NCBI RefSeq assembly: GCF_014640075.1
Contig: NZ_BMGG01000002.1
Coordinates: 1-64,000 of the forward strand
Source of the DNA: Chelatococcus reniformis
GTDB taxonomy: Bacteria > Pseudomonadota > Alphaproteobacteria > Rhizobiales > Beijerinckiaceae
Length of the DNA stretch: 64,000 bases
Reading direction: 5' to 3'
The translations under genes were made by a program, and so were the position numbers. The notes beneath the pieces are model-generated. The model was not told where the DNA came from and made no database searches. It saw nothing but the letters and a program-made list of their open reading frames with translations. This document shows, piece by piece, positions 38,625-53,463 of the stretch. Numbering within the stretch: position 1 is the stretch's first letter; the number at the start of each line of letters is the position of its first letter.

Positions 38625-40234
38625 GCCCGCCGCTTCGAACCTTGCTCGAGATCGTAGTCGACGGCGCCGCCGTCCGCGCGGAACCGGTGCTCACCTTCGT
38701 CGAGGTGAAGCACGACGGCTCGCTCGCCGAGGAGCGGCGGAGCTACGCTGAGCTGTTGGACAATGGATGTCGAATCGCGGGAGCTCTTGAGGCGGCCGGC
38801 ATGGCGGCGGGCGATGCCTTCGCCATCGTGATGAGGAACCATCCCGAATTCGTCGACGCGATGATCGGCTCCGAAGTCGCCGGCACGGTGTTCGTGCCGA
38901 TCGATCCCCGCACCCGGGGCGACAAGCTGGCGTACATGCTGCGCTTCGCCCGCTGCCGGGGCGCCATCGTGTCGCCCGAGGTGGTGGAGAACCTTCGCCC
39001 GTTGCTCGCCGATCTGCCCGATCTGGAGTGGGTCTGGGTGATCGGCGTGGGTGGGGCGGACGGACGCTTCGAGTCGTTCGCCGATGTCGTCAGAGCATCG
39101 CCACCGGCAACGGCGATGACACCGCGGCGTCTCGCCGATCCGATGCAGTTGCTGTTCACCTCCGGGACGACCGGCGACCCCAAGGCCATCGTGGCGTCAC
39201 ATGCCCGCTTCGCGGGCGTTGCAGCTCTCGGCCCAATGTTCGGGCTCCGGCCGGACGATCGCCTCTATACCGGCCTGTCACTGACCCACGCCAACGCGCA
39301 GTTCATCACGCTCAGCAGCGCCTTGGCGATGCAGGTACCGCTCGTCATCAGCCGGCAGTTCACCAAGTCGCTCCTGTGGGAGATCGTCACCCGATACAAC
39401 TGTACGACCTTCAATCTGCTGGGCGGCATGGCGACCGCGATCTTTGCCGAGCCGCCCGGCCCATTGGACCGCGCGCACCGGGTTCGCTTCGTGCTCAGCG
39501 CGGGCATGCCGGCGGCCATGTGGCGACCGTTCGAGGAGCGCTTTGGAACCCGCATCTTCGAGTTCTTTGGCACGGCGGAAGGTGGCCTGACGCTAAACCC
39601 ACCCGCGGCGGGGCCGGTCGGCTCGATCGGCAGAGCCGAACCCGGCCTGGTCTGCGAGATCCTGCTCCCGGACGACAGCATTGCACGTGCCGGCACGCTC
39701 GGCGAAATTTGCTTCCGCAACGCAGACGGTTCCGTGACACCGGTCACCTATTTCGGCAACGAGCAGGCATCCGCCGTCAAGACCAGGAACGGTTGGTTTC
39801 GCTCGGGCGATATCGGCTGGAAGGACGCGGCCGGCTGGCTCTTCTTCTCGCATCGGGCCGGACAGTCGATCCGCCGCAACGGCGATTTCATCGATGCTCG
39901 CGAGGTCGAGGCGGCCATTGCCAACATACCAGGTGTCCTGGACGCCTACGTCTATGGGGTGGCCACCGCTTCCAATACGCCGGGCGAAAAGCAGGTGGTT
40001 GCCGCGCTGGTCGTCAGCCCCGGCCTCGTCGAGCCGCGGGAAATCTTCGCCGACTGCGCGAGCAAACTGGGTTCGACGGGCGTGCCCAACTTCGTGCAGA
40101 TGGTCGCCGAAATTCCCAAGACCGCATCCGAGAAGCCGCAGGACAGGCATCTGATCGCCATGCTGAATGAGGGCAGATGTCAACTATTTGACAGGAACGG
40201 GCCGGCTGAGCTCACATTCGCGCATGAAGCATGA
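38621..40234 (+). CDS. AMP-dependent acyl-CoA ligase
   Basis: A 537-aa adenylate-forming ligase. The A3 motif is L-L-F-T-S-G-T-T-G-D-P-K-A, then F-E-F-F-G-T-A-E-G (A5), R-S-G-D-I-G-W-K-D (A7) and the C-terminal domain hinge with R-R-N-G-D-F-I-D-A. The end reads E-I-P-K-T-A-S-E-K-P-Q in place of P-x-T-x-x-G-K, so the catalytic Lys is probably present as that K. This layout resembles CaiC/crotonobetaine-type ligases. Its start overlaps the thiolase stop. With the thiolase and the Tat-type binding protein downstream it forms a short uptake-and-degradation unit. Confidence 0.88.
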   Translation: MSPPLRTLLEIVVDGAAVRAEPVLTFVEVKHDGSLAEERRSYAELLDNGCRIAGALEAAGMAAGDAFAIVMRNHPEFVDAMIGSEVAGTVFVPIDPRTRGDKLAYMLRFARCRGAIVSPEVVENLRPLLADLPDLEWVWVIGVGGADGRFESFADVVRASPPATAMTPRRLADPMQLLFTSGTTGDPKAIVASHARFAGVAALGPMFGLRPDDRLYTGLSLTHANAQFITLSSALAMQVPLVISRQFTKSLLWEIVTRYNCTTFNLLGGMATAIFAEPPGPLDRAHRVRFVLSAGMPAAMWRPFEERFGTRIFEFFGTAEGGLTLNPPAAGPVGSIGRAEPGLVCEILLPDDSIARAGTLGEICFRNADGSVTPVTYFGNEQASAVKTRNGWFRSGDIGWKDAAGWLFFSHRAGQSIRRNGDFIDAREVEAAIANIPGVLDAYVYGVATASNTPGEKQVVAALVVSPGLVEPREIFADCASKLGSTGVPNFVQMVAEIPKTASEKPQDRHLIAMLNEGRCQLFDRNGPAELTFAHEA

Positions 40235-40344
40235 AGATCGTTCGTGATAATAATAAATAACAGAAACCGATAGATTTGGAGTCGCATAGTCGAACGTAAA
40301 GCCAAATAGACAAAAAGAACCCAAGATCTACAGGGGAGAATGGC

Positions 40345-41574
40345 ATGCCAAGTATTTCAAGGCGCAATCTGCTGCGGGCCGGGGTTGGCTTCGGCGCTGC
40401 GGGCGCGCTCGGTCTTCCGGCGGGTGCCGGCGCTCAAGCGCGGACCCGGCCTTTGCGGCTCGGTGTCCTGACGGATATGACAGGCTTCTATTCAAATATC
40501 GGAGGGCCGGGATCGGTGGAAGCCGTTCGCATGGCCGTGGAGGATTTCGGCGGGCGGGTTCGCGATCTCAAGATCGAGGTGCTCCAGGGTGATCATCAGA
40601 ACAAGCCGGATGTGGGATCAGGAATCGCTCGGCGCTGGATCGACGAGCAGGGTGTCGGCGCAATTCTCGATGTACCCACCTCGTCGGTCGCGCTCGCCGT
40701 GCAGGCCTTGACCCGGGAAAAGGGCGTCGTCGCGATCTACGGGACCGCTGCGTCGGAGAGCCTGACAAACGAGGAATGCTCACCCACCGGCATACAGTAT
40801 GTGTACGACACCTACTCGATCGCCCATGTGACCGCCAAGGCGACCATCGCCGATGGGGGTGATACATGGTTCTTCGTGACGGCGGACTATGCGGTCGGTC
40901 ACGCATTGGAAAAATCGGTCAGTGAGGTTGTCGCGGCGAGCGGAGGCAAGATACTCGGCGCAGTCAGGGCGCCCCTGGGGACCGTCGATTTCTCTTCGTT
41001 TCTCCTGCAGGCACAGATGTCGAAGGCCAAAATTGTTGCATTCGCGAGCGCTGGTCTCGACACGGTCAATGCTATCAAACAGGCGCAGGAGTTCGGCTTG
41101 GTCAACGGTGGCCAGCGCCTTGTGGGACTCCTCCTGTTCCTCTCCGATATTGATGCGCTCGGGCTTGATGCGGCACAGGGGAGTCTCTTCGCGACATCCT
41201 TTTATTGGGACGCCGATGAAGGTAGCCGCGCGTGGTCGAAGCGATACTTCGAGCGCATGAGGCGGATGCCGAACGACGTCCAGGCCGGCCTCTACTCGGC
41301 CACGACGCACTACTTGAAGGGCGTGCAGGCTGCCGGGCCGGTCGGCATAGACGCTGTTCGCTGGATGACGAATAACGAGGTGACGGATTTCTTTGCGAAG
41401 CCGGGCCGTATTGGACGCAATGGACGATTGTACAAGGACATGTATCTCGCCGAGGTTAAGAAGCCATCCGAGTCCAAGGGACGCTGGGATTGTCTCAAGC
41501 TCGTGGCAACTTCACCTGCGGGCCAATCCTTCAAGTCTGAAGCGGACAGCAAGTGCAAGGTTCGCCCGATCTAG
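40345..41574 (+). CDS. LIV-type ABC transporter substrate-binding protein 2
   Basis: A 409-aa periplasmic binding protein. The N-terminus S-R-R-N-L-L-R-A-G-V-G-F-G-A-A-G-A is a twin-arginine (Tat) type signal, unlike binding proteins 1 and 3. The mature part L-R-L-G-V-L-T-D-M-T-G-F-Y and G-P-G-S-V-E-A-V-R-M-A-V-E-D belongs to the branched-chain family. AGGGGAG precedes the ATG. It follows the CoA ligase after a 110-bp AT-rich gap (own promoter likely). No permease adjoins. Its stop codon TAG is the first base triplet of the dispersed repeat. Confidence 0.88.
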   Translation: MPSISRRNLLRAGVGFGAAGALGLPAGAGAQARTRPLRLGVLTDMTGFYSNIGGPGSVEAVRMAVEDFGGRVRDLKIEVLQGDHQNKPDVGSGIARRWIDEQGVGAILDVPTSSVALAVQALTREKGVVAIYGTAASESLTNEECSPTGIQYVYDTYSIAHVTAKATIADGGDTWFFVTADYAVGHALEKSVSEVVAASGGKILGAVRAPLGTVDFSSFLLQAQMSKAKIVAFASAGLDTVNAIKQAQEFGLVNGGQRLVGLLLFLSDIDALGLDAAQGSLFATSFYWDADEGSRAWSKRYFERMRRMPNDVQAGLYSATTHYLKGVQAAGPVGIDAVRWMTNNEVTDFFAKPGRIGRNGRLYKDMYLAEVKKPSESKGRWDCLKLVATSPAGQSFKSEADSKCKVRPI

Positions 41575-41844: not shown

Positions 41845-42669
41845 TCACGACAGCCACCGCCGCCGTTGCCGGTAGTGCTTCACCGCGGCGTAGTCGACCT
41901 GATGCCCCCCGCCCAGGTAGGCCGCCTGCACGTCGGGATTAGCCTTCACGGTGGCAGCCGCGCCGCCCATCACGACGCGACCGTTGTCGACCAGATAGGC
42001 TTGATCGACGAAGTCGAGGGCTGCGGCGGCGTTCTGCTCCACCAGCAGCACCGCGACGCCGGCCTCTGCGTTCACTTTGCGCAGAATGTCGAAGATCTCG
42101 TCGACGAGCAGCGGCGAAAGCCCGAGGCTCGGCTCGTCCAGCATGAGCAGCTTGGGCTCGGTCATCAAGGCGCGGCCGATGGCCAGCATCTGCTGCTCAC
42201 CGCCTGAAAGGTAGCCGGCCTTGGCCTTGGCCCGCTCGGCGAGCCTTGGAAACCAGGTGAAGGTGCGATCGATCAGGTCCTTCACGCCGCGTCGGTCGCG
42301 GTGCATGGAGGTCGCCGCGATCAGGTTCTCGCGCGGCGTCAGGTGCTCGAACACCCTTCGGCCTTCGAGCACGTGCACCAGCCCCAGCCGCACCCGGTCC
42401 GGCGGGTCGAGGCCGAGGAGGCTCTCGCCTCGGAAGGCGATGTCGCCGCGAGTGACGGCGCCGCGCTCCGGCTTGAGCAGGCCGCTGATCGCCTTCAGCG
42501 TCGTGCTCTTGCCGGCGCCGTTGGCGCCGAGGAGGGCGACGACGCCGCCCTCCGCCACGTCGAGCGAAACGCCCTTCACCGCCAGGAAGACGTTGTCGTA
42601 GACCACCTCGATGTTGTTCACCGAAAGGATCGGCGGCGAGCCTGCGGCCGCCGTGGAGATGTCGCCCAT
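41845..42669 (-). CDS. livF: LIV-type ABC transporter ATP-binding protein LivF
   Basis: A 274-aa cytosolic ATPase that drives import. Walker A G-A-N-G-A-G-K-S-T-T, signature L-S-G-G-E-Q-Q, Walker B L-L-M-L-D-E-P-S and the L-V-E-Q-N ending of the LivF type are all present. An unusual 20-residue C-terminal tail is basic (H-Y-R-Q-R-R-R-W). The ATG at 42669 begins shortly after the binding-protein gene's stop (11 bases). Last gene of the ten-gene minus-strand operon. Confidence 0.93.
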   Translation of the reverse strand: MGDISTAAAGSPPILSVNNIEVVYDNVFLAVKGVSLDVAEGGVVALLGANGAGKSTTLKAISGLLKPERGAVTRGDIAFRGESLLGLDPPDRVRLGLVHVLEGRRVFEHLTPRENLIAATSMHRDRRGVKDLIDRTFTWFPRLAERAKAKAGYLSGGEQQMLAIGRALMTEPKLLMLDEPSLGLSPLLVDEIFDILRKVNAEAGVAVLLVEQNAAAALDFVDQAYLVDNGRVVMGGAAATVKANPDVQAAYLGGGHQVDYAAVKHYRQRRRWLS

Positions 42670-42680
42670 CGACCCGCCGC

Positions 42681-43934
42681 CTATTTGCCCGTCGCTTTGA
42701 ACTCGGCCGCCTGCTTGCGGATCATCTCCCAGATGATGTCCTGGTTGGCCGCGCCCCACCCGGTGACGGCGACCCATTTGACGCCGTCCCAGCGGGCCAC
42801 CTTGCCCTGGCCGCCGCCCTGGTGGTCCTCCGGCGTGATGGTGATGGGCGGCAGGAAGCCGCCGAGGTCGAACTTGGAGATGCTGGTCAGACCGGCGTTG
42901 AGCCATTCGCCGGTGAAGGGGCCGGTCGGGTTCTTCTCCAGCGCCTTGCGGGCACCCTCGGCCGCGAGCGCTGCGGCCATCACGCCGACGTTGTAGTAGG
43001 AGGTGCCGACCTTGTCCTTGGGACCGGCGCCCTTACCCTTGTCGACGACTTCGGCGATGATGTCCTTGATCACCTTGCTGTCGGCGCCCTGCTCGGTGAC
43101 GGCGAACTTCAGCACGCCCTTTGCCTCGGCGCGGCCGACCACGTCCATGTCCGATTCCGACAGCCACACCCAGGAGGCGATGCGGTCGACGCGGATGCCG
43201 TTGCGGATCGCCTCCTTGATCGAGACGGGCTGGCCGACGCCGCCGCCGCCGATGAACACCCAGTCGGGCCGGAAACGGCGCACCTGGGTCCACACCGCCG
43301 ACTGCTCGTTGCCCGGCGGCGCGTAGGGGTAGGTCTGCAGCTCGAAGCCGTCCTTCTTGGCCAAGGCCTCCCATAGGGGCAACGACTCCCGGCCGAACGG
43401 CGTGTCGATATAGACATAGGCGAGCTTCTTGCCCTTGAGGTCCTTCTCCTCCTGCCGGATATAGTCGACCATGCGGGCGACCTGCGACCAGTAGCTTGGC
43501 GACATGGGCAGCACGTAGGGGAAGACGGTGCCGTCGGCCGCGTCGCTGCGGCCCGACATGGTGGTGATCAGATTGACCTTGTCCTGCAGGGCGCGCGTCA
43601 CCAGCGCTCGGCTCACCGGCGTCGACAGCGGATCGACCAGTATGGCGCCGTCGCGCGTGGAGCGCTCGAAGGCTTCCATGCCGCGCTGGATGGCGTTGCC
43701 GTGGTCGGAGACGAGCACGTCGATCTTGATCCCGCCGAGGCCGCCGCGCTCGTTGATCAATGTGATGTAGTCCCGATAGCCCTGGTTGTACTCGGCCGTC
43801 ACGAAGGTATAGACGACGGTGAAATCCTGCGGCGTGGCGAACTTCAGCACCTTGTCCTGCGCCATGACTGGTTGAGCCAGCAGCGGCAAGGCGGCAAGCG
43901 CGGCGCATGCGGCTGCACGGATGGTCGTGAGCAT
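42681..43934 (-). CDS. LIV-type ABC transporter substrate-binding protein 3
   Basis: A 417-aa periplasmic binding protein with a Sec signal (A-A-A-C-A-A-L-A-A-L-P-L-L-A-Q-P-V-M-A-Q). The mature protein starts K-F-A-T-P-Q-D-F-T-V-V-Y and has G-L-G-G-I-K-I-D-V-L-V-S-D-H-G-N and S-G-R-S-D-A-A-D-G-T. This branch (long, with F-T-x-V-Y) often lies beside an acyl-CoA ligase and LivHMGF in proteobacteria and probably binds aromatic or fatty acids. GGAGGAG precedes the ATG. Ninth gene of the operon, between LivM and LivF. Confidence 0.92.
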   Translation of the reverse strand: MLTTIRAAACAALAALPLLAQPVMAQDKVLKFATPQDFTVVYTFVTAEYNQGYRDYITLINERGGLGGIKIDVLVSDHGNAIQRGMEAFERSTRDGAILVDPLSTPVSRALVTRALQDKVNLITTMSGRSDAADGTVFPYVLPMSPSYWSQVARMVDYIRQEEKDLKGKKLAYVYIDTPFGRESLPLWEALAKKDGFELQTYPYAPPGNEQSAVWTQVRRFRPDWVFIGGGGVGQPVSIKEAIRNGIRVDRIASWVWLSESDMDVVGRAEAKGVLKFAVTEQGADSKVIKDIIAEVVDKGKGAGPKDKVGTSYYNVGVMAAALAAEGARKALEKNPTGPFTGEWLNAGLTSISKFDLGGFLPPITITPEDHQGGGQGKVARWDGVKWVAVTGWGAANQDIIWEMIRKQAAEFKATGK

Positions 43935-43984
43935 GGTGTCTCCTCCGAGTTCGGCCCCGCGCTTCTTGTGGCGCGGGAGGCCGG

Positions 43985-45055
43985 TTAGCTGCGGGCGTGG
44001 CGGAACGGCCAGACCAGCAGATACTTGCGAGCGTTGTCGTAGAGCTTGGCGAGGCCCAGCGGCTCCGCGATCAGAAATCCCACGATGAGCGCGCCATAGA
44101 GCACAAGTGGCAGGTGGGCGCGCAGGTCGCTGCCGATGGGCAGCCCGCTGCTGGCGAGGCTCGCCACCAACGCGCTGAGCGCCAGCGGCGCCAGCAGGAT
44201 CAACGCTGCGCCCAGGAACGTGCCGAGCACGCTGCCAAGGCCCCCGACGATGACCATGGCGACGAGCTGGACCGACGTCTCCAGGTGGAACTGCTCGGGC
44301 GAGACGCTGCGGTAGTAGCAGAACACCAGGATCGCGCCGGCGACGCCGCCGATGAACGAGCTGGTCCAGAACGCCATCAGCTTGTAGCGGAAAGCGCTGA
44401 TGCCGAGGATCTCGGCCGCATAGTCCTTCTCGCGGATGGCCGCCAGCGCCCGCCCGAAACTGGTCCGCCGCAGGTTGAGCATGAACAGCGTCACCACGAT
44501 GCAGACCACCAGCGCGATGTAATAGCCGCCGACCGGGCCTTCGACGGGGATGCCGAGGATGCGCGGCGTCGGTGTCGCCACGGTCGCCTGCGTGCCGCCG
44601 CTGATGGCCGGGATGTGGCCGATGGCGAAGTCGACGATGTACTGCATGGCCAGCGTGGCGATGGCGAGATAGAGGCCGCGGATGCGCAGCGCCGCCGCGC
44701 CGAAGATGACGCCGATGACGGCACTGGCGAGGCCCGCAACGAGGAGGCTCAGCTCGAACGGCAGGCCGGCGCGGGCGGCGTGGGTGGCGCTGTAGGCGCC
44801 GATCGCCATGACCGCGGCGTAGCCGAGGTGAATCTGGCCGGCGCCGCCCATCAGCAGGTTGAGGCCCAGCGCCGCGATGGACCAGATCACCCAGGGCAGC
44901 AGGTAGCTGGACAGCAGCAGGGGGCTGAGCAGCGCCGGCGCGATCAGGGCCAGCGCCAGGATCAGGCCCATCAGCACGCGCTCGATGCCGAGCGGCCACA
45001 GCTGCCGTTCGGCCGGGTAGCTGGTGTAGCGGATGCCGGCCTGGCGGTAGAACAT
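43985..45055 (-). CDS. livM: LIV-type ABC transporter permease LivM
   Basis: A 356-aa inner-membrane permease with about nine spans. It carries L-G-L-N-L-L-M-G-G-A-G-Q-I-H-L-G-Y-A-A, R-I-R-G-L-Y-L-A-I-A-T-L-A and the cytoplasmic coupling loop R-R-T-S-F-G-R-A-L-A-A-I-R-E-K-D-Y-A-A. The ATG at 45055 follows the LivH stop by two bases. Forms the channel with LivH, driven by LivG and LivF. Confidence 0.93.
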   Translation of the reverse strand: MFYRQAGIRYTSYPAERQLWPLGIERVLMGLILALALIAPALLSPLLLSSYLLPWVIWSIAALGLNLLMGGAGQIHLGYAAVMAIGAYSATHAARAGLPFELSLLVAGLASAVIGVIFGAAALRIRGLYLAIATLAMQYIVDFAIGHIPAISGGTQATVATPTPRILGIPVEGPVGGYYIALVVCIVVTLFMLNLRRTSFGRALAAIREKDYAAEILGISAFRYKLMAFWTSSFIGGVAGAILVFCYYRSVSPEQFHLETSVQLVAMVIVGGLGSVLGTFLGAALILLAPLALSALVASLASSGLPIGSDLRAHLPLVLYGALIVGFLIAEPLGLAKLYDNARKYLLVWPFRHARS

Positions 45056-45057
45056 CG

Positions 45058-45945
45058 CTACACCCGCTCGATGTGTTCGCGGCCGAAGAGGCCCTCGGGC
45101 TTCACCAGCAGCGTCGCCAGGATGATGACGCACGCGACGATGTCGCGCGTGCCGCCGCCGACGAGCGGGTCGAAGAGCCCGGACGCGATGGCCTCGGCGA
45201 CGCCGACGATGAGGCCGGCGACGACGACGCCGACGATGCTGTCGAGGCCGCCGAGGATGGCGATGGCGAGCGCCTTGATCAGAAGCAGCGACAGGGTCCA
45301 GTCGACGCCCTGGGAGCCGCCCCAGAGGATGCCGGCGGCGGTGCCGGTGACGGCGGCCAGGCCCCACGCGAAGGCGATGGCCCACTCGACGCGGATGCCG
45401 ACCGACCACGACGCGGTCTGATCGTCCGAAACCGCGCGCAACATGATGCCTATGCGCGAGTTGAACAGCGCGAGGGTCGCCAGGATGATGATGAGGGCGA
45501 TGCCCGCCGACACCAGATAGGTGCGGTTGATCAGCATGTCGCCGAGAAACAGAGGCGCGTCCGAGATGCCGAGGTCGAGCCGCTTGACGCCGGAGCCGAG
45601 CAGGCCGGGCACCAGGCCGCGCATCAGGATTTCCAGGCCGATCGTCACCATGATGATCATGATCACCGGCTGGCCGATCAGCGGGCGCAAGGTGGTGCGC
45701 TCGATGCCGAGGCCGATGGCGAACATCACGACCATGGCGACGAGCGCCCCGAGGATCGGGTGGAGGCCGAGCCAGGCGATGGTGATCCAGCCGAGGTAAC
45801 CGCCGAGCATGGCGATGGCGCCCTGGGCCAGGTTGGCGAGGCCGGAGGTCCGATACACCAGCACGATGCCGAGCGCTGCCAGCGCATACATCAGCCCGAC
45901 CAGGGCGCCGTTGATGATCAGTTCGCCGAAGAGCGCGAGATCCAT
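45058..45945 (-). CDS. livH: LIV-type ABC transporter permease LivH
   Basis: A 295-aa permease of the LivH type: I-I-N-G-A-L-V-G-L-M-Y-A-L-A-A-L-G, L-A-Q-G-A-I-A-M-L-G, the E-R-T-T-L-R-P-L element and the coupling loop S-R-I-G-I-M-L-R-A-V-S-D-D. Start at 45945 overlaps the preceding acyl-CoA ligase stop as TGATG, which indicates coupled translation. Partner of LivM. Confidence 0.93.
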   Translation of the reverse strand: MDLALFGELIINGALVGLMYALAALGIVLVYRTSGLANLAQGAIAMLGGYLGWITIAWLGLHPILGALVAMVVMFAIGLGIERTTLRPLIGQPVIMIIMVTIGLEILMRGLVPGLLGSGVKRLDLGISDAPLFLGDMLINRTYLVSAGIALIIILATLALFNSRIGIMLRAVSDDQTASWSVGIRVEWAIAFAWGLAAVTGTAAGILWGGSQGVDWTLSLLLIKALAIAILGGLDSIVGVVVAGLIVGVAEAIASGLFDPLVGGGTRDIVACVIILATLLVKPEGLFGREHIERV

Positions 45946-47966
45946 CACCGGCCCTCCATCGCCTGCCGCTGCGCACCGTTGCCGAGGCGAACGGGTATGG
46001 CCCGGTCCTCGAATGCCGCATCGGCGACGTCGGCCAGCGCCAGCCTGCGGGCGAAGGCGCCGGTGGTGCCATTCTCGTAGGTGATGGTGATCTCGACGTC
46101 GGCGTGCTCGGCCCCCGCATAGAGCGCCGCGATCAGTGGCGCATAGCGCTCCTCCACGACGGTGCGGCGCAGCTTGCGGGTGCGGGTGATCTCGCCGTCG
46201 TCGGCATCGAAGTCCTTGTGCAGGTTGACGAAGCGGCGGATGCGAAGGGGCGCCGACAGCTGCCGGTTGATGTCGTCGAGGCTGTTGCGGACGAGCTCGC
46301 ACACCTGGGGCAGCTGCGACAGCTCGGCGAAGGACGAATAGGCGAGGCCGCGCTGCTCGGCCCAGTGGCCCACCGCCTCCCGATCGATGCAGACGATGGC
46401 GGCGAGCCACGGCTTGCCCGCGCCCAGCACCGCCAGATTGCGGATGTAGGGGCTGAACTTGATGCGGTTCTCGAGGTAATTGGGGATGTAGCGATCCCCC
46501 GCCGCCGTGTGCACGACTTCGCTCACCCGGCCGTAGACGACGAGCTGTCCATCCGGCTCGATCGCTCCGGCATCTCCGGTGCGCAGCCAGCCGTCGCCGG
46601 TGAATGCCTTCGCTGTCGCCGCCGGGTCGTTGAAATAGCCATCGACGGTCGATTGGGAGCGGACGAGGATCTCGCCGTCGTCACCGAGCTTGATCTCGAC
46701 GCCCGGCAGCGGGCGGCCGACCGTGTCGAGGCGGACGTCGTCTGCGAATTGTATGGCGGTCATGGCGCAGGTCTCGGTCTGGCCGTAGAGCTGGGTGAGC
46801 TTGATGCCGAGGGCACGGAAGAACAGGAAGGTGTCCTCCCCCAGCGCCTCGCCGCCGGTGAAGGCGTGCCTGGCGCGCGACAAGCCGAGGTAATCCTTCA
46901 GCGGGGCGAAGATGACGGCCTCGCCCACCCGGCGCACGAGTTCGTCGCGCGCCGACGGGGCCTCGCCGGCCAGGCGCCGCCGCTCCATGGCGATGGCCCG
47001 CGGCATGAAGAAGTTGAACAGCGCGCGCTTGAGCGGGGTGGAATCGGCGATGCCGACCTGCACCCGCGTCAGCATGGCGTCCCAGGCGCGGGGGGCGGCG
47101 AGATACAGCGTGGGCGCCACAGCACGCAAATCCAGCATCGCCGTTTCCTGGCGCTCGGGAATGTTGATGGTGAAGCGCATCACCAGCGCCGCGGCGATGC
47201 TCAGCAGGTAGTCGCCGACCCAGGCAATCGGTAGATAGGCGAAGGTGTCCTCGCCGGTGGCGAAGGCTCCGGCGCAGCCCCCGCTCCAGGCGGCGGCCAC
47301 CGCGTTGCGCTGGCGGATGGCGATGCCCTTGGGCGTTCCCGTCGTGCCGGAGGAATGCATCAGGATGGCGATGTCGTCCGGCCGGCTACGGCCCTCCAGG
47401 TCAGCCGCCAGGCCCGGAACTGCGGCCAGCCGGGCGCGTCCCTGCTCGATGAGCTTGGCATACGGGACGAGACCGGCTGCCGTGGACTGTGCGAGCCCCC
47501 TGGGGTCGTCGTAAACGATATGCCGTGGCCGGCCGATGGAGCTGCGCAGGTCGAGCAGCTTGTCGACCTGCTCCTGGTCCTCGGCGAAGGCGACGGCCGG
47601 CTCGCCGTGGCGAGTGTAGAGCTCCAGCTCGGCCGGCGGTACGTCGGCGAACACCGGGGCGGAGAAGGCGCGCAGCACGTTGGCGGCCAGCATGGCGGCG
47701 TAGAGGCTGGCCCTGTTGTCGCCGATGATGGTGACGGCGGTGTCTGGGCCGACGCCCAGCTCCTCCAGCCCCGCGGCCAGCGCCAGCACCTCGCCGTGAA
47801 GGTCGTGCCAGCTGCGCTCGCGCCACAGCCCGAGCTCACGCTCGCGGATGGCGGTGGTGCCGCCATGGTCGCGGGCGTTGCGCGCCAGCGCGGCTATGAG
47901 CGTCGCTGGCGGACCCGTTCCGGCTGCCTCCGGAGCCACGGCGGCAGGGGTGGCACGGGCGTTCAC
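45945..47966 (-). CDS. Long-chain-type acyl-CoA ligase inside the LIV transport operon
   Basis: A 673-aa adenylate-forming ligase of the long-chain FadD/ACSL shape. A3 is I-L-M-H-S-S-G-T-T-G-T-P-K-G; Q-L-Y-G-Q-T-E-T (A5), L-R-T-G-D-A-G-A-I (A7) and R-K-L-R-R-T-V-V (A10 region) follow. The last about 70 residues form an extension beyond the usual end (V-E-I-T-I-T-Y-E-N-G-T-T-G). It starts with GTG at 47966 overlapping the LivG stop (GTGA), and its own stop overlaps the LivH start, so a ligase is translationally locked between an ATPase and a permease of the same importer. This suggests activation of the imported acid at the inner face of the membrane. Confidence 0.92.
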   Translation of the reverse strand: MNARATPAAVAPEAAGTGPPATLIAALARNARDHGGTTAIRERELGLWRERSWHDLHGEVLALAAGLEELGVGPDTAVTIIGDNRASLYAAMLAANVLRAFSAPVFADVPPAELELYTRHGEPAVAFAEDQEQVDKLLDLRSSIGRPRHIVYDDPRGLAQSTAAGLVPYAKLIEQGRARLAAVPGLAADLEGRSRPDDIAILMHSSGTTGTPKGIAIRQRNAVAAAWSGGCAGAFATGEDTFAYLPIAWVGDYLLSIAAALVMRFTINIPERQETAMLDLRAVAPTLYLAAPRAWDAMLTRVQVGIADSTPLKRALFNFFMPRAIAMERRRLAGEAPSARDELVRRVGEAVIFAPLKDYLGLSRARHAFTGGEALGEDTFLFFRALGIKLTQLYGQTETCAMTAIQFADDVRLDTVGRPLPGVEIKLGDDGEILVRSQSTVDGYFNDPAATAKAFTGDGWLRTGDAGAIEPDGQLVVYGRVSEVVHTAAGDRYIPNYLENRIKFSPYIRNLAVLGAGKPWLAAIVCIDREAVGHWAEQRGLAYSSFAELSQLPQVCELVRNSLDDINRQLSAPLRIRRFVNLHKDFDADDGEITRTRKLRRTVVEERYAPLIAALYAGAEHADVEITITYENGTTGAFARRLALADVADAAFEDRAIPVRLGNGAQRQAMEGR

Positions 47967-48778
47967 GACACGGCTCGCAGCTGGCGCCGCGCCGCGCTGT
48001 GGCCGAGGTAGGCCTCGATTACCTTGGGCGACGCCATGGCCTCGGCGGGCGGCCCCGCGGCGATGGTCTCACCGTAGTTGAGCACCAGCACGCGGTCGCA
48101 GATCGCCATCACCACGTCCATGTGATGCTCGATGACGAGCACGCTGACCCCGCGCTCGTCTCGTGCGTCCAGGATGAAGCGGGCGATATACTCCTTCTCC
48201 TCCTGGTTCATGCCGGCCATGGGCTCGTCGAGGATCAGCACGCGCGGCTCGGCGGCGAGGGCGCGGGCCAGCTCGACGCGCTTTTGCAGCCCGAGCGGCA
48301 CCACCTCGACCGGTTCGTGCCGGATCTCCTGGAGCTGCATGAACTCGATGATTTCCTCGACCACGGTGCGGTGCGCGGTCTCCTCGCGCACCGCCGCCAC
48401 CCAGTAGAACAGCGTGCCGAGCACGCTCGGATGCATGTGGATGTGGCGGCCGACCAAGATGTTGTCGAGCACGCTCATGCCCTTGAACAGCGCCAGGTTC
48501 TGGAACGTGCGGGCGATGCCGCGCCGCGTGATGGCATGGGGCGCAAGGCCGGTGATGTCGTCGCCGAACAGCGCCACGCGGCCCGCATTGGGCGGATAGA
48601 AGCCCGTGATGACGTTGACCATGGTGGTCTTGCCGCTGCCGTTCGGGCCGACGAGCCCGAAGATCTCGCCCGGCCGAACCTCCAGGTCGACGCCCTTGAG
48701 CGCCTTCAGCCCGCCGAACGAGCGCTCGATGCCGCGGCAGGCGAGGGCGGGAGCGTCCGTTGGGGCGAGGCGCGGCAT
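47963..48778 (-). CDS. livG: LIV-type ABC transporter ATP-binding protein LivG
   Basis: A 271-aa ATPase. Walker A G-P-N-G-S-G-K-T-T, a signature region L-G-L-Q-K-R-V-E that departs from LSGGQ as in many LivG-like partners of acyl-CoA ligases, Walker B V-L-I-L-D-E-P-M-A-G-M-N and H-loop V-I-E-H-H-M-D-V-V-M. R-T-F-Q-N-L-A-L-F holds the Q-loop. The start at 48778 is nine bases after the carboxyltransferase stop. Pairs with LivF. Confidence 0.92.
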   Translation of the reverse strand: MPRLAPTDAPALACRGIERSFGGLKALKGVDLEVRPGEIFGLVGPNGSGKTTMVNVITGFYPPNAGRVALFGDDITGLAPHAITRRGIARTFQNLALFKGMSVLDNILVGRHIHMHPSVLGTLFYWVAAVREETAHRTVVEEIIEFMQLQEIRHEPVEVVPLGLQKRVELARALAAEPRVLILDEPMAGMNQEEKEYIARFILDARDERGVSVLVIEHHMDVVMAICDRVLVLNYGETIAAGPPAEAMASPKVIEAYLGHSAARRQLRAVS

Positions 48779-48787
48779 CTGATCCCC

Positions 48788-50392
48788 TCACATCCGGAAG
48801 ACGCCGTAGTGCGGCGGCGGGATCGGGGCGTTGAGCGCGGCGCTCAGCGCCACGGCGAGCGCATTGCGCGTATCGACGGGATCGAGGATGCCGTCGTCCC
48901 ACAGCTCCGAGGTGGCATAATAGGCGCTCGACTGGCGCTTGTAATCGGTGAGGATAGGGTCGCGGATCGCTGCGATCTCAGCGGCGCTCAGGCTGCGGCC
49001 GTCCCGGGCGATCTGGCGCAGCTTGACGTCGGTCAGCACGCCGGCCGCCTGCTCGGCGCCCATGACGGACACCTGCGCCTGGGGCCAGGAGAACATGAAG
49101 CGCGGATCGAAGGCGCGCCCCGCCATGCCGTAGGTGCCGGCGCCGTAGGAACCGTTGACCACCACCGTGAACTTGGGCACCGCAGCGCCGGCCACAGCCA
49201 TGATCATCTTGGCGCCGTCCTTGGTGATGCCGGCGCGTTCGTAGTCGCGGCCCACCATGAAGCCGGTGATGTTCTGCAGGAAGACGAGCGGCGTACGGTT
49301 CTTGTCGCAGAGCTGGATGAAATGGGCGCCCTTGAGCGCGCTGTCGTTGAACAGCACGCCATTGTTGGCGAGGATGCCGATCTGGTAGCCGTGCAGGTTG
49401 GCGAAGCCGCAGACCAGCGTCTTGCCGTAGTTCGGCTGGTATTCATGAAAGCGGCTGCCGTCGACGATGCGGGCGATGATCTCGCGCATGTCGAACTGGA
49501 CCCGGGTGTCGCGGGGCAGGATGCCGTAGAGCTCGTCCGGGTCGTAGGCCGGGGGCTCGGGCGTGCTGCGCTCGATCGCCTTGGCCGGCCGCTCGAAGCA
49601 CCCGACGATCTCGCGCGCCATGGCCAGCGCCTCCAGTTCCGAGGCGGCGGCATAGTCGGCCGTGCCCGAGACCGACGTGTGCATGTCGGCGCCGCCCAGC
49701 TCTTCGGCGGAAACGTCTTCGCCGGTGGCGGCCTTCACCAGCGACGGGCCGCCCAGAAAGATGGCGCCGGTGCCACGGGTCATGACGCTGTAGTCGCTGA
49801 GTGCCGGCACGTAGGCGCCGCCGGCGGTGCAATGGCCGAGCACCACTGCGACCTGCGGCACGCCCATCTTCGACAGGATCGACTGGTTGCGGAAGATGCG
49901 GCCGGCGTAATAGCGGTCGGCGAACAGCTCCGCCTGCAACGGCAGAAAGCCGCCGGCGCTGTCGCAGAGGTGCACCACCGGCAGCCGGTTCTCGATGGCG
50001 ATGTCGAGCGTGCGGATGATCTTCTTGACGGACAGCGGATACCAGGCGCCGCCCTTCACGCTGGCGTCGTCCGCATGGATGATCACCTCGCGGCCGGCGA
50101 CGACGCCGATGCCGGAGACCTGGGCGGCGCCGGGGACCTCGCCGTCGTAGGCCATGTTGGCGGCGAGCGTCGACAGCTCCAGGAAGGGCGTCTGCGGGTC
50201 GAGCAACTGCTCGAGGCGCTCGCGCACCAGGAGCTTGTTCTGCCGCCGCAGCCGCTCGATGTCGCGGACCGGGCGGGCATGGCGCGCGGCGTGCTGGCGC
50301 TCCCTGAGCTCGCCGGCGAGCGCCCGGTTGTGGTCCTGATTGGCGCGGAACTCGTCGCTTCGCGTGTCCAGGAGGCTTCTGATGCGGCGCAT
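48788..50392 (-). CDS. Acyl-CoA carboxylase, carboxyltransferase (beta) subunit
   Basis: A 534-aa crotonase-fold carboxyltransferase that moves CO2 from carboxybiotin to an acyl-CoA. A-Y-D-G-E-V-P-G-A-A, A-G-G-F-L-P-L-Q, G-H-C-T-A-G-G-A-Y-V-P-A and F-L-Q-N-I-T-G-F-M-V-G match the methylcrotonyl-/geranyl-CoA carboxylase branch more than the propionyl-CoA branch. The last part (A-W-P-Q-A-Q-type F-S-W-P-Q-A-Q-V-S-V-M-G-A-E-Q-A) is also typical. Follows the biotin carrier gene by one base. Substrate most likely a branched enoyl-CoA; unproven. Confidence 0.9.
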   Translation of the reverse strand: MRRIRSLLDTRSDEFRANQDHNRALAGELRERQHAARHARPVRDIERLRRQNKLLVRERLEQLLDPQTPFLELSTLAANMAYDGEVPGAAQVSGIGVVAGREVIIHADDASVKGGAWYPLSVKKIIRTLDIAIENRLPVVHLCDSAGGFLPLQAELFADRYYAGRIFRNQSILSKMGVPQVAVVLGHCTAGGAYVPALSDYSVMTRGTGAIFLGGPSLVKAATGEDVSAEELGGADMHTSVSGTADYAAASELEALAMAREIVGCFERPAKAIERSTPEPPAYDPDELYGILPRDTRVQFDMREIIARIVDGSRFHEYQPNYGKTLVCGFANLHGYQIGILANNGVLFNDSALKGAHFIQLCDKNRTPLVFLQNITGFMVGRDYERAGITKDGAKMIMAVAGAAVPKFTVVVNGSYGAGTYGMAGRAFDPRFMFSWPQAQVSVMGAEQAAGVLTDVKLRQIARDGRSLSAAEIAAIRDPILTDYKRQSSAYYATSELWDDGILDPVDTRNALAVALSAALNAPIPPPHYGVFRM

Positions 50393-50393
50393 C

Positions 50394-50905
50394 TCAGGCC
50401 TCCTCGCCGGCGAGCGTCAGGGTGACCAGGACTGCGTCACGGTCGAAGCTCTGTCCGGCGCGCACACGCACTTCGTCCACCGAACCGGAGGCGGTGGCGC
50501 GGATCGTGGTCTCCAGCTTCATGCTCTCGATGACGATCAGCCGATCGCCCGGTTGCACCACCGCTCCCGGATCCACCGCGATCTCGAGCACGGTGCCGGG
50601 CATCGGCGCCCGGATCAGCGCGTGCCCGCCCGCTTCCGGCGCGCCGCCGGCCTGGATCGGGTCGTGGAGGCGCACTGCGTGGGCCGCGCCGTCGATGAAC
50701 ACATGGACGGTATCGCCGACGGCGGCGAGGACCACGGGATGGCTTGCGCCGTCGACGACCAGATCGTGATGGTGGCCGCCACGCGGCTCCAGGCGCACGG
50801 TGTGGCTGGCGTCGCCGAGGATCAGACGAAACGCGCCCGGCTGCCCGTCGCCAGGCGCCAGCCAGAGGCGATGATCAGCGCCCTCGATGTCGAAACGGTG
50901 CCGCA

Positions 50906-50906
<1 letters not shown>
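50394..50906 (-). CDS. Biotin carboxyl carrier protein, separate subunit
   Basis: A 170-aa protein whose last 75 residues form a biotinyl domain: A-P-M-P-G-T-V-L-E-I, then E-S-M-K-L-E with the biotinylated Lys130. The first about 90 residues are beta-rich and repetitive (H-D-L-V-V-D-G-A-S-H-P-V-V and V-H-V-F-I-D-G-A-A-H-A-V) and may correspond to the BT domain that links the two functions in fused alpha subunits. ATG 50906 overlaps the biotin carboxylase stop as TGATG. In most methylcrotonyl-type enzymes this piece is fused to the carboxylase; here it is its own gene. Confidence 0.88.
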
Positions 50907-52393
<1,487 letters not shown>

Positions 52394-52394
52394 G

Positions 52395-53027
52395 TCAGCC
52401 GGCCCTGGCGCCGGCGCGGCGCCTGGCGGGCGGCGCCAGCAGGCCGCGGGTGAGCAGAGCGGTCAGCTCGTCGGTGGTCTCCTCCACGTCGAGCGCGCCG
52501 CGGCTGTTCACGAAGCGCCAGGCCCGATGCTCGATGGCGCCGAAGATGATGTCGCGCAGCAGGCGCGGGTTGATGTCGCCGCGCACCGTGCCGGCCGCCA
52601 CGGCCTGGTCGACGATCTTGATCAGCACCGAGGTGTAGGCCCGGTTCAGCTCCTGGATGGCCGAACCGTGATAATCGCTGGCGACGCGCACCTCCGAAAT
52701 GAACAGGCGGCACAGGTCGGTATCGGCGACGAACACCGAGAGGTGCCGGCGGATCAGCTCACGCAGCTGGGCCTCGAAGGTGGTCTCGGCCATCACGGAC
52801 CGCTCGAGATCGACGAGGATGCGCTCATAGAAGACGCGCAGGACGTGGTAAAGCAGATCCCGCTTGTTGCGGAAATAACGGTAGACAAGACCGTCAGATA
52901 CATCTGCCGCGCGTGCGATATCCGCAATGGAGGATCCCTCGTAGCCCTTTTCGGAGAAGACAGTCTTGGCGGCACGAAGAATCGAGTCGGCTCGATCCTG
53001 CATCCGCTTGGCGCTGATTACAGGCAT
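52395..53027 (-). CDS. TetR family regulator heading the operon
   Basis: A 210-aa regulator with HTH I-L-R-A-A-K-T-V-F-S-E-K-G-Y, S-S-I-A-D-I-A-R-A-A-D-V-S and L-V-Y-R-Y-F-R-N-K-R-D-L-L. The C-terminal domain (V-F-V-A-D-T-D-L-C-R-L-F-I-S-E-V-R) resembles regulators of fatty-acid and branched-acid genes of the FadR/AcnR-like TetR group. First gene of the ten-gene minus-strand unit, so probably autoregulated. A TGAAT-N3-ATTCA palindrome lies about 90 bases upstream. Acyl-CoA is a plausible effector. Confidence 0.9.
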   Translation of the reverse strand: MPVISAKRMQDRADSILRAAKTVFSEKGYEGSSIADIARAADVSDGLVYRYFRNKRDLLYHVLRVFYERILVDLERSVMAETTFEAQLRELIRRHLSVFVADTDLCRLFISEVRVASDYHGSAIQELNRAYTSVLIKIVDQAVAAGTVRGDINPRLLRDIIFGAIEHRAWRFVNSRGALDVEETTDELTALLTRGLLAPPARRRAGARAG

Positions 53028-53463
53028 AGCTACCGTCTATTATGGGAATGGACCTGCTTGGCCCGCCGAACGTCCTCCCTCCGCGCGTTGTTTGCCGCGC
53101 TAGCCATAGTCATAGTGAATATCATTCATTTAAGCTTGTCAACCGCCGGCGGAGTCCGCGCACCGCATGGCCATCGTGGCGCTCGCGGGTGTTCCGGTCG
53201 GCATGGGGTGCCGACATCCCAGTCGCCGCGTCGGTGCTGCTCGACGGCTTGGTGCGCGTCCGGGTTGAGGCGCCTCGCCCCCGTGTCCTTACGCTCGATT
53301 TGACATCGGTGCAGCGACGCGCGCAGCCTGGAAAGGCCGCTCCAAGAGGCGGCTTGGCCTGCGAATTGCAGAAGCGGACACGCGTGGCCGCTCGCGTCGC
53401 CGGTCGATCCAAAAGAACGAGCAGCCGCGCCTTCGGCGAGGTTCTCCTGGGGTGGACGTTCAC
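53028..53463. other. Divergent regulatory region, TetR operon and AraC gene
   Basis: The first about 110 bases are AT-richer and hold the palindrome at 53116-53128 plus a short direct repeat (catagt-catagt). The remaining 300 bases are GC-rich with no firm gene. Promoters for the carboxylase/LIV operon and for the AraC gene must lie here. Confidence 0.5.
53116..53128. promoter_or_regulatory. Candidate TetR operator TGAAT-ATC-ATTCA
   Basis: A perfect 5+3+5 palindrome about 90 bases upstream of the TetR start codon, in the only AT-rich part of the region. Consistent with autoregulation of the operon, but a single short palindrome is modest evidence. Confidence 0.45.

What the first reader, a model, noticed from the sequence alone, without database searches (positions are those of the whole stretch)
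41845..53027. Ten-gene unit joining LIV-type import, acyl-CoA activation and biotin-dependent carboxylation
TetR, biotin carboxylase, biotin carrier, carboxyltransferase, LivG, a 673-aa acyl-CoA ligase, LivH, LivM, a binding protein and LivF lie on one strand. Most overlap or lie within about 10 bases (TGATG, GTGA junctions); only binding protein to LivM has a somewhat larger gap of about 50. The ligase is translationally coupled to LivG before it and LivH after it. Seen: the order, overlaps and motifs. Known: acyl-CoA ligases near LIV transporters, and methylcrotonyl/geranyl-type carboxylases in branched-acid breakdown. Inferred: a vectorial system in which an acid is imported, CoA-activated at the membrane and then carboxylated, regulated by an acyl-CoA-sensing TetR.
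Basis: partly seen in the sequence, partly recalled or inferred. Interest (0 to 1): 0.75.

Follow-up and report, generated by a model that had tools for sequence, protein, structure and literature searches.

The report
Operon pairing acid import with carboxylation
A bacterial gene cluster that seems to import an oily, branched plant-type acid, tag it with coenzyme A and then add carbon dioxide to it, using an unusual three-piece version of the enzymes that break down leucine and the fragrance compound geraniol.

Summary
The ten genes, order and junctions are as reported. The unit is not a chance run: the exact order recurs in 4 of 105 related loci (a fifth has one inserted gene), LIV/ligase genes lie within about 10 kb in 21 of 105, and of 385 class genomes all 5 holding both genes keep ligase and carboxyltransferase within 10 kb. 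The carboxylase is a distinct clade of the methylcrotonyl/geranyl-CoA (gamma-carboxylating) lineage: BC and BCCP are separate genes, cut inside the BT domain (97 of 97 scorable loci), with Ala/Gly/Ser, never Phe, at the residue that limits substrate size (105 of 106, one gapped). Frequent neighbours are acyclic-terpene-type genes (AtuA, ACAD, hydratase; at least one in 69 of 105). A palindrome, TGAATNNNATTCA, marks TetR/ACAD/hydratase/LivG promoters. This genome has four exact copies in 6.8 Mb: before this operon, before a ligase/binding-protein operon, before an SDR orthologue, and inside a tRNA; a one-mismatch copy precedes an ACAD orthologue 25 kb away. Best reading: a FadR-like-TetR regulon that imports, activates, desaturates and gamma-carboxylates an isoprenoid-type 3-methyl-branched acid bigger than C5. 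Activation 'at the membrane' is unsupported; the substrate is unproven. New variant of a known kind.

The parts
53116..53128 (.). Operator palindrome TGAATATCATTCA, just downstream of a TTGACA at 53142-53137 (minus strand) in the TetR-operon promoter region
   Evidence: conserved before TetR/ACAD/ECH/LivG in related loci
52395..53027 (-). TetR-family regulator, FadR/YsiA-like (210 aa)
   Evidence: Pfam TetR_N, TetR_C_24, YsiA-like TetR_C_4; NCBIfam FadR 109 bits, below its 200-bit cut-off; best PDB matches 1vi0 and 3whb
50906..52393 (-). Biotin carboxylase subunit (495 aa), ends ...GGWRN* before the BT beta-strands
   Evidence: Pfam Biotin_carb_N, CPSase_L_D2, Biotin_carb_C; split conserved; BC tree
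50394..50906 (-). Biotin carrier subunit (170 aa from the ATG at 50906): BT beta-strands plus BCCP domain, biotin motif ESMKL
   Evidence: Pfam Biotin_lipoyl and BT_MCC_alpha model positions 40-118; predicted eight strands then BCCP fold, pLDDT 88.9; structure matches to MCC/PCC alpha
48788..50392 (-). Carboxyltransferase subunit (534 aa), Ala163 at the MCC Phe191 position
47963..48778 (-). LivG-type ATPase (271 aa)
   Evidence: Pfam ABC_tran + BCA_ABC_TP_C; NCBIfam LivG 244 bits, below cut-off 362
45945..47966 (-). Long acyl-CoA ligase (673 aa), FadD11/AMP-binding_C_3 type
   Evidence: Pfam AMP-binding + AMP-binding_C_3; NCBIfam FadD11 270 bits, below cut-off 950; SSGTTGTPKG and TRTRKLRR motifs
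45058..45945 (-). LivH-type permease (295 aa)
   Evidence: PF02653 hit; 65-68% identity to LivH in syntenic loci; 96 hydrophobic windows
43985..45055 (-). LivM-type permease (356 aa)
   Evidence: Pfam BPD_transp_2
42681..43934 (-). Periplasmic binding protein (417 aa, signal-peptide-like N terminus)
   Evidence: Pfam Peripla_BP_6; nearest structure 4ru0; 56-63% identical to those of ten LIV-linked loci
41845..42666 (-). LivF-type ATPase (273 aa)
   Evidence: Pfam ABC_tran; NCBIfam LivF 201 bits, below cut-off 441

Best explanation
This is the core operon of a TetR (FadR-like) regulon for uptake and breakdown of an isoprenoid-type, 3-methyl-branched carboxylic acid larger than C5. The binding protein and LivHMGF import the acid (inferred); the ligase makes the CoA thioester (inferred from family and motifs); a regulon acyl-CoA dehydrogenase encoded 25 kb away makes the 2-enoyl-CoA if the acid is saturated (inferred from orthology and operator); the BC-BCCP-CT complex, a three-gene relative of methylcrotonyl- and geranyl-CoA carboxylase, carboxylates the gamma-methyl group (lineage shown, substrate inferred), after which hydration and an AtuA-type lyase would remove the branch as acetate, as in the Atu pathway (inferred). 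The TetR blocks the promoter until an acyl-CoA accumulates (operator supported by conservation, ligand inferred).
For: Carboxylase: CT nearest to MCC-beta (608-618 bits), then GCC-beta (449 bits), far above PCC-beta (268 bits); split clade on one side of a branch, SH-aLRT 99 for CT and BC, BC nested among fused alpha subunits. Pocket: the MCC Phe191 site is Ala in 97, Gly in 7, Ser in 1, gapped in 1 of 106 clade CTs; Phe here blocks geranyl-CoA and Gly admits it (PMC4673880, passages). Context: 69 of 105 loci carry AtuA, ACAD or ECH partners; AtuA in 39 of 105 against 0 of 19 canonical MCC loci, P=0.0004. LIV link: ligase orthologue in 7 and CT clade in 15 of 385 genomes, both in 5, P=9e-7, within 10 kb in 5 of 5; exact ten-gene order in L050, L099, L117, L134, plus L109 with one inserted gene, each of the five with a divergent ACAD. 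Regulon: exact TGAATNNNATTCA in 12 places over 103 loci, 12 of 12 just upstream of ACAD/TetR/ECH/LivG, against none upstream for 29 permuted half-sites; own genome 4 exact sites, 3 on this contig before this operon, a ligase/SBP operon and an SDR 72-73% identical to SDRs of L109, L117 and L134; a 1-mismatch site precedes the ACAD orthologue, 78-80% identical to those of L050/L134.
Against: No substrate is shown. AtuA and hydratase orthologues of the closest clusters were not found in this genome (best 54% and 44%), so the late steps would have to borrow other genes. 84 of 105 loci have no LIV/ligase genes within about 10 kb, and 36 of 105 have no atu-type partner by my criteria, 25 of them in rhizobial genera. 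On the 65-row CT tree the LIV label needs 9 changes, so it is not an obligate trait. The clade is patchy: 4 of 60 family genomes have it, and the one other genome of the same genus in that draw does not. One of 19 control MCC loci has LIV permease-like genes about 9 kb away (L190). The ligase-only contrast with controls is modest (P=0.026). The palindrome was read off some of the same promoters on which it was then counted, and related loci are not independent; most LivG sites carry one mismatch.
Confidence: 0.62

Rival explanations
1. The split carboxylase is a second methylcrotonyl-CoA carboxylase, and the operon imports and uses short branched acids (isovalerate, 3-methylcrotonate) or leucine-like compounds.
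For: CT is up to 56% identical to canonical MCC-beta (54% to this genome's own) and keeps the MCC-like three-residue insertion; LIV transporters are named for branched amino acids.
Against: Phe191 is absent in every scorable clade member; the genome has a canonical MCC, CT at C2:730889 with a 682-aa fused alpha at C2:721589; the frequent neighbours are AtuA and close ACAD, which 0 of 19 control MCC loci have; two loci hold the split cluster followed by a second, Phe-bearing MCC-type CT (L166, L180).
Confidence: 0.12
2. The substrate is a sterol-type or other C24-branched side chain, or a cyclic or other non-acyclic branched acid, gamma-carboxylated by the same chemistry.
For: Small residue at the pocket-limiting site; the clade occurs in Nevskia, Solimonas and Zhongshania, which I recall as including hydrocarbon and steroid degraders; this genome also has a GCC-type cluster, suggesting a different substrate for the split enzyme; a PF08028 acyl-CoA-dehydrogenase-like gene, a domain I recall from steroid-ring monooxygenases among others, lies opposite the SDR at the C2:112176 site.
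Against: No clearly steroid-specific gene among the neighbours that I ran against Pfam, only a sample; the PF08028 gene has no relative in the 105 loci; a periplasmic-binding-protein importer is an unlikely route for whole sterols; the stigmasterol paper I searched for the word (PMC11061730) mentions no carboxylase.
Confidence: 0.15
3. The liv/ligase block and the carboxylase are two unrelated modules that lie together by chance in a genome full of LIV operons.
For: The genome has 114 PF02653 matches, so LIV genes are everywhere; 84 of 105 carboxylase loci lack them nearby.
Against: Ten-gene order kept in four other loci and nearly so in a fifth; 5 of 5 genomes with both ligase orthologue and CT have them within 10 kb (P for sharing genomes 9e-7); the palindrome also stands before LivG in L089, L095, L163 and L177 (six sites, five with one mismatch).
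Confidence: 0.05
4. BC and BCCP are really one protein, separated here by a sequencing error or rejoined by programmed frameshifting.
For: TGATG junction; MCC/GCC alpha subunits are single chains of 650-684 aa (18 of 18 scored; 2 of 20 control loci had no BC in range).
Against: Split in 97 of 97 scorable loci, ending at W-x-N in 91 and W-x-N plus one residue in 6; the BCCP frame relative to BC is 0, +1 or +2 in 12, 44 and 37 cases, window included (5 without a scorable motif); in L109 another gene lies between them.
Confidence: 0.03

Closest known systems
Geranyl-CoA carboxylase (AtuC/AtuF) and the atuRABCDEFGH cluster of Pseudomonas
   Same: Gamma-carboxylase lineage, small residue at the Phe191/Gly162 site; in relatives, neighbours AtuA, ACAD, hydratase, SDR, CoA ligase and a TetR regulator
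   Different: Alpha subunit split into two genes; CT keeps the MCC-like three-residue insertion and is a separate clade; in part of the loci it comes with a LIV importer, which the atu operon as described in PMC4847356 (passages) does not list
3-Methylcrotonyl-CoA carboxylase (LiuB/LiuD)
   Same: CT up to 56% identical; long N-terminal region
   Different: Fused alpha subunit, Phe at 191, biotin motif EAMKM in 15 of 18 controls (3 unscored) against ESMK in 102 of 105 split loci (one EGMKL, 2 unscored)
Three-subunit (BC, BCCP, CT) archaeal acetyl/propionyl-CoA carboxylase (PMC3199775, passages)
   Same: Three separate genes
   Different: Here the break is inside the BT domain and BC nests among fused bacterial alpha subunits, so it looks like a later fission; the archaeal enzymes themselves were not in my trees
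LIV (HAAT) importers with a built-in long acyl-CoA ligase gene
   Same: All five full-length matches to this ligase in the genome lie within about 2 kb of LIV permease genes; among 20 carboxylase-linked ligase loci the ligase ends in TGATG in 12
   Different: Of the five in this genome only this one showed carboxylase genes among the references used
FadR/YsiA-type TetR fatty-acid regulators
   Same: Best sequence and PDB matches; few operators per genome, as for FadR of Sulfolobus, which binds four genomic sites (PMC6449355, passages)
   Different: Controls a carboxylase/import unit; operator TGAATNNNATTCA defined here by comparison only

Membership tests
Geranyl-CoA carboxylase | Gly at the MCC Phe191 position | tested here: not met
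   Ala163 in the window; Ala 97, Gly 7, Ser 1, gap 1 of 106 clade CTs
Geranyl-CoA carboxylase | No three-residue insertion before that residue | tested here: not met
   The window keeps the MCC-like length, this genome's GCC-type CT lacks it
Geranyl-CoA carboxylase | Fused BC-BT-BCCP alpha subunit | tested here: not met
   Split in the window and in 97 of 97 scorable related loci
Geranyl-CoA carboxylase | Activity on geranyl-CoA | not testable with these tools
   Needs enzyme assay
3-Methylcrotonyl-CoA carboxylase | Phe191 | tested here: not met
   Phe in 0 of 106 clade CTs
3-Methylcrotonyl-CoA carboxylase | Fused alpha subunit | tested here: not met
MCC/GCC gamma-carboxylase lineage | CT groups with MCC/GCC rather than PCC; long N-terminal helix region | tested here: met
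   Scores; N-terminal stretch aligned with MCC; tree with only two PCC rows, both on long branches. The helix itself was not modelled
Acyclic terpene utilisation (Atu) cluster | AtuA, ACAD, hydratase, SDR next to the carboxylase | tested here: inconclusive
   Met in many relatives (AtuA 39, ACAD 54, ECH 36 of 105); in this genome ACAD and SDR orthologues lie elsewhere on the contig behind operators, AtuA/ECH orthologues not found
LIV/HAAT ABC importer | Two ATPases, two BPD_transp_2 permeases, one Peripla_BP_6 protein | tested here: met
LIV/HAAT ABC importer | Ligand | not testable with these tools
   Nearest structure 4ru0 is itself labelled putative
FadR/YsiA TetR | Sequence match to FadR | tested here: inconclusive
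   Best NCBIfam hit, 109 bits, below the 200-bit cut-off; best PDB matches 1vi0 and 3whb

The most novel reading that the evidence does not exclude
A third, widespread lineage of gamma-carboxylating acyl-CoA carboxylases, made of three separate subunits by an old gene fission inside the BT domain, acts on an unknown isoprenoid-type acyl-CoA distinct from the GCC substrate, and in several bacterial families is wired by one acyl-CoA-sensing TetR to a dedicated LIV importer and ligase, giving acyclic-terpenoid acids a high-affinity uptake route.
Probability: 0.45. Interest if true: 0.72.

Novelty: new variant of a known kind. Interest (0 to 1): 0.6.

Why it matters
It gives a concrete substrate class, testable by growth and enzyme assay, to some of the very numerous LIV transporters that carry a CoA ligase, and it marks out a carboxylase subfamily that passed none of the curated NCBIfam cut-offs among the rows shown. 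The fission inside the BT domain is also a natural test of how that domain holds these large complexes together. In the library searched I found no description of a split methylcrotonyl/geranyl-type alpha subunit or of a LIV importer in an acyclic-terpene cluster (searches; listings, with passages of five papers); subscription papers are mostly not held.

Tried and rejected
Frameshift or sequencing error for the BC/BCCP break: rejected, because the split is in 97 of 97 scorable loci, the frame varies and one locus has a gene between them. Chance adjacency of liv and carboxylase genes: rejected. Sterol side-chain carboxylase: kept as a rival; PMC11061730, searched for words only, has no mention of a carboxylase. 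Membrane-bound ligase: no support. BC structure prediction without an alignment failed (pLDDT 36) and was not used. NCBIfam names: no window protein passed a curated cut-off among the rows shown. A literature search with six gene terms returned nothing. The site at C7:452800 was rejected as an operator because it lies inside a tRNA-Ala gene.

Rows dropped or unscored: 8 of 105 loci had no scorable BC; 5 junctions had no biotin motif; two of 20 control loci gave no BC; L132 has a broken CT row; two duplicate loci (L084, L087) were dropped. In one search three of the eight comparison rows (own_liuB, cG084, cG012) were translated on the wrong strand and not used. Trees hold 65 of 106 clade CTs and 42 split BCs. 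Genome samples are draws, not full sets. The 19 canonical MCC controls are all from the same order. LIV and partner counts depend on my identity thresholds. Contig ends cut some loci, so absences near ends are unsafe. One-mismatch palindromes were not counted over the whole genome, only in the fetched stretches. Gene starts are starts of the matched region, not proven start codons.
Full report
OBSERVATION. The ten genes lie on the minus strand at 41845-53027 in the stated order with the stated close junctions. Exact spacings are TetR/BC 1, BC/BCCP overlap TGATG, BCCP/CT 1, CT/LivG 9, LivG/ligase overlap of 4 (GTGA), ligase/LivH overlap of 1 (TGATG), LivH/LivM 2, LivM/SBP 50, SBP/LivF 14 bases. 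The only correction is that SBP/LivF is 14, not 10 or less. BCCP most likely starts at the ATG at 50906; a GTG at 50918 is the alternative. The neighbours on both sides face the other way, so the unit is bounded. Pfam supports nine of the ten; LivH was sent in the wrong frame there and rests.

THE CARBOXYLASE IS A DISTINCT SUBFAMILY. Against solved structures the CT is nearest to methylcrotonyl-CoA carboxylase beta chains: 618 bits for 9tps, deposited as a propionyl-CoA carboxylase beta subunit although one search lists entry 9tqc, which has the same sequence, as an L. pneumophila methylcrotonyl-CoA carboxylase; 608 bits for 3u9r. Geranyl-CoA carboxylase follows (449 bits), and the other chains named propionyl-CoA carboxylase are far below (268 bits or less). 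In 150 genomes of the order it forms a group with seven CTs at 68-76% identity, clearly above the canonical MCC group at 56% or less. With 65 split, 22 MCC-type, 2 GCC-type and 2 PCC-type CTs the split group is one side of a branch with SH-aLRT 99 (a quick tree, with long-branch warnings for the PCC and GCC rows).

SPLIT ALPHA SUBUNIT. In MCC and GCC the BC, BT and BCCP domains are one alpha subunit (PMC3199775 and PMC4673880, passages read). Here BC and BCCP are separate genes. This holds in 97 of 97 related loci with a scorable BC (8 of 105 had none), while 18 of 18 scored control alpha subunits are fused, 650-684 aa (2 of 20 control loci gave no BC). The BC ends at W-x-N in 91 and at W-x-N plus one residue in 6 of the 97. 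The BCCP frame relative to BC is 0, +1 or +2 in 12, 44 and 37 cases, window included, with 5 lacking a scorable motif, and in L109 a nitronate-monooxygenase-like gene lies between BC and BCCP. So neither a sequencing slip nor programmed frameshifting explains it. Pfam matches the BCCP protein to the MCC BT domain from model position 40 on, and the predicted structure of the BCCP subunit (pLDDT 88.9) has eight strands, read as the BT barrel, followed by a BCCP domain. It aligns over its length with BT-BCCP of MCC and PCC alpha chains (TM by query length only 0.38-0.47 and rmsd often 14-16 A, as expected if the two domains sit differently). So the cut falls inside BT, leaving its strands with BCCP. 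The BC tree puts the split BCs together (SH-aLRT 99) among fused alpha subunits, next to this genome's GCC alpha (85, weak), away from two of its three stand-alone AccC-sized proteins; the third (L224) branches between. That fits a later fission (inference). The biotin motif is ESMK in 102 of 105 loci against EAMKM in 15 of 18 controls, 3 unscored.

SUBSTRATE POCKET. MCC Phe191 blocks the larger geranyl-CoA and is Gly in GCC; mutating it changes substrate preference (PMC4673880, passages). I placed Phe191 by counting on the human MCC chain shown. The window has Ala163 there; across 106 clade CTs it is Ala 97, Gly 7, Ser 1, gap 1, never Phe; of the three non-clade CTs in the same alignment two have Phe and one Gly. 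The MCC-like three-residue insertion is kept. By the published guidelines the enzyme is therefore neither MCC nor GCC, with room for a substrate larger than methylcrotonyl-CoA (inference).

GENOMIC COMPANY. Among 105 loci, 39 have AtuA, 54 a close ACAD, 36 a close enoyl-CoA hydratase, 69 at least one of these. [quoted passage not shown] Of 19 canonical MCC loci from the same order, 0 have AtuA or the ligase, and one has LIV permease-like genes about 9 kb off. LIV/ligase genes lie within about 10 kb in 21 of 105 loci, 16 on the same strand, in two subfamilies of LIV/ligase. The exact ten-gene order is in L050, L099, L117 and L134, and in L109 with one inserted gene; each of the five has an ACAD facing away from TetR. 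In 385 genomes of the class the CT clade is in 15 and the ligase orthologue in 7; 5 hold both, and in all 5 they lie within 10 kb (0.8, 6.2, 6.2, 9.0 and 9.9 kb; in the 9.0-kb case on opposite strands) (hypergeometric P 9e-7). Two genomes have the ligase without the carboxylase and ten the reverse, at these thresholds. In the family draw 4 of 60 genomes have the CT clade and the one other genome of the same genus does not. On the 65-row CT tree the LIV label needs 9 changes, so the link is recurrent and also often absent. [quoted passage not shown]

REGULON. The TetR is closest to FadR/YsiA-type acyl-CoA regulators, below the NCBIfam cut-off. Comparing promoters gave the palindrome TGAATNNNATTCA (it was read off related loci, not off the window). 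Over 103 loci it occurs exactly 12 times, all 12 between 300 bases upstream and 60 downstream of the matched start of ACAD, TetR, ECH or LivG; 29 permuted half-sites gave 0.3 exact sites on average and none upstream; with up to one mismatch 50 of 71 sites are upstream, against a mean of 2.2 and a maximum of 10 for controls. This count is partly circular, since some of these promoters suggested the motif, and related loci are not independent. The own-genome sites are the cleaner test. In L089, L095, L163 and L177 the palindrome stands before LivG (six sites, five with one mismatch). In this 6.8-Mb genome there are four exact sites and none of the backward control: 53116 before this operon, just after a TTGACA; C2:73092 between an AMP-ligase/binding-protein operon and a DUF7064 gene, the latter 60-65% identical to genes in L094, L098 and L165; C2:112176 before an SDR 72-73% identical to the SDRs of L109, L117 and L134; and one inside a tRNA-Ala gene on C7. 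A one-mismatch site at C2:77622 lies about 60 bases before the ACAD orthologue, 78-80% identical to L050/L134. Some of the genes missing from the window's cluster are thus found again behind related operators on the same contig. Orthologues of AtuA and the hydratase were not found; the best AtuA (54% to L134) belongs to this genome's GCC-type cluster at C5, whose CT matches GCC 5ikl at 585 bits; no palindrome was found in the two fetched AtuA stretches.

MECHANISM. Shown: gene order, close junctions, lineage, split, pocket residue, recurrent association, conserved palindrome. Inferred: ABC import of an acid, activation by the ligase, dehydrogenation by the regulon ACAD, gamma-carboxylation, later hydration and lyase steps, and TetR release by an acyl-CoA. 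The ligase has no convincing membrane segment, so membrane-site activation remains unsupported. The ligand of the binding protein is unknown; the nearest structure 4ru0 is labelled only putative.

NOVELTY. The parts are known kinds. What I could not find described in the searched library is the conserved split-alpha gamma-carboxylase subfamily and its tie to a LIV importer. I rate it a new variant of a known kind, interest 0.6.

Noticed in passing
L103, L104, L107, L108, L110, L111, L113, L115, L116, L118, L119, L121-L126, L128-L130, L133, L139, L141: Many Bradyrhizobium, Ensifer, Sinorhizobium and Mesorhizobium genomes carry the split carboxylase, often with one AMP ligase, but without LIV or atu genes by my criteria; neighbours sampled in L103, L123 and L125 include M16 peptidases, an aldehyde dehydrogenase, aminotransferases and anthranilate-phosphoribosyltransferase/IGPS-like genes. 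Possibly a symbiosis-region use of the enzyme (a guess).
   Followed up: partly
L166 and L180: The split-carboxylase cluster is directly followed by a second CT with Phe at the 191 site, a hydratase, a BC and an ACAD, as if an Atu-like unit were joined to a Liu unit.
   Followed up: partly
L090, L091, L092, L169: BCCP and CT of the split type without a recognisable BC beside them; in L091 a glyoxalase-family gene sits next to BCCP.
   Followed up: partly
G000 C10:61792, C6:379407, C7:263310, C1:364820 and window 45945: All five full-length matches to this ligase in the genome lie within about 2 kb of LIV permease genes; the genome has 114 BPD_transp_2 matches.
   Followed up: partly
L132 (Bradyrhizobium valentinum): CT appears in two pieces and two BC pieces are seen: a broken gene or an assembly fault.
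   Followed up: no
L109:8528-9419: A nitronate-monooxygenase-like gene lies between BC and BCCP; the same family follows the carboxylase genes in L051-L053.
   Followed up: no
L206:4323-12225 (G000 C2:66-74 kb): AMP ligase, two LIV-type binding proteins, an APH-fold gene and a hydratase on one strand, opposite a DUF7064 gene, around an exact palindrome; DUF7064 relatives also sit near split carboxylases in L094, L098 and L165, APH relatives in L094, L098 and L157.
   Followed up: partly
window 38621-41574: A second CoA ligase and a LIV-type binding protein on the plus strand, convergent with the operon.
   Followed up: no
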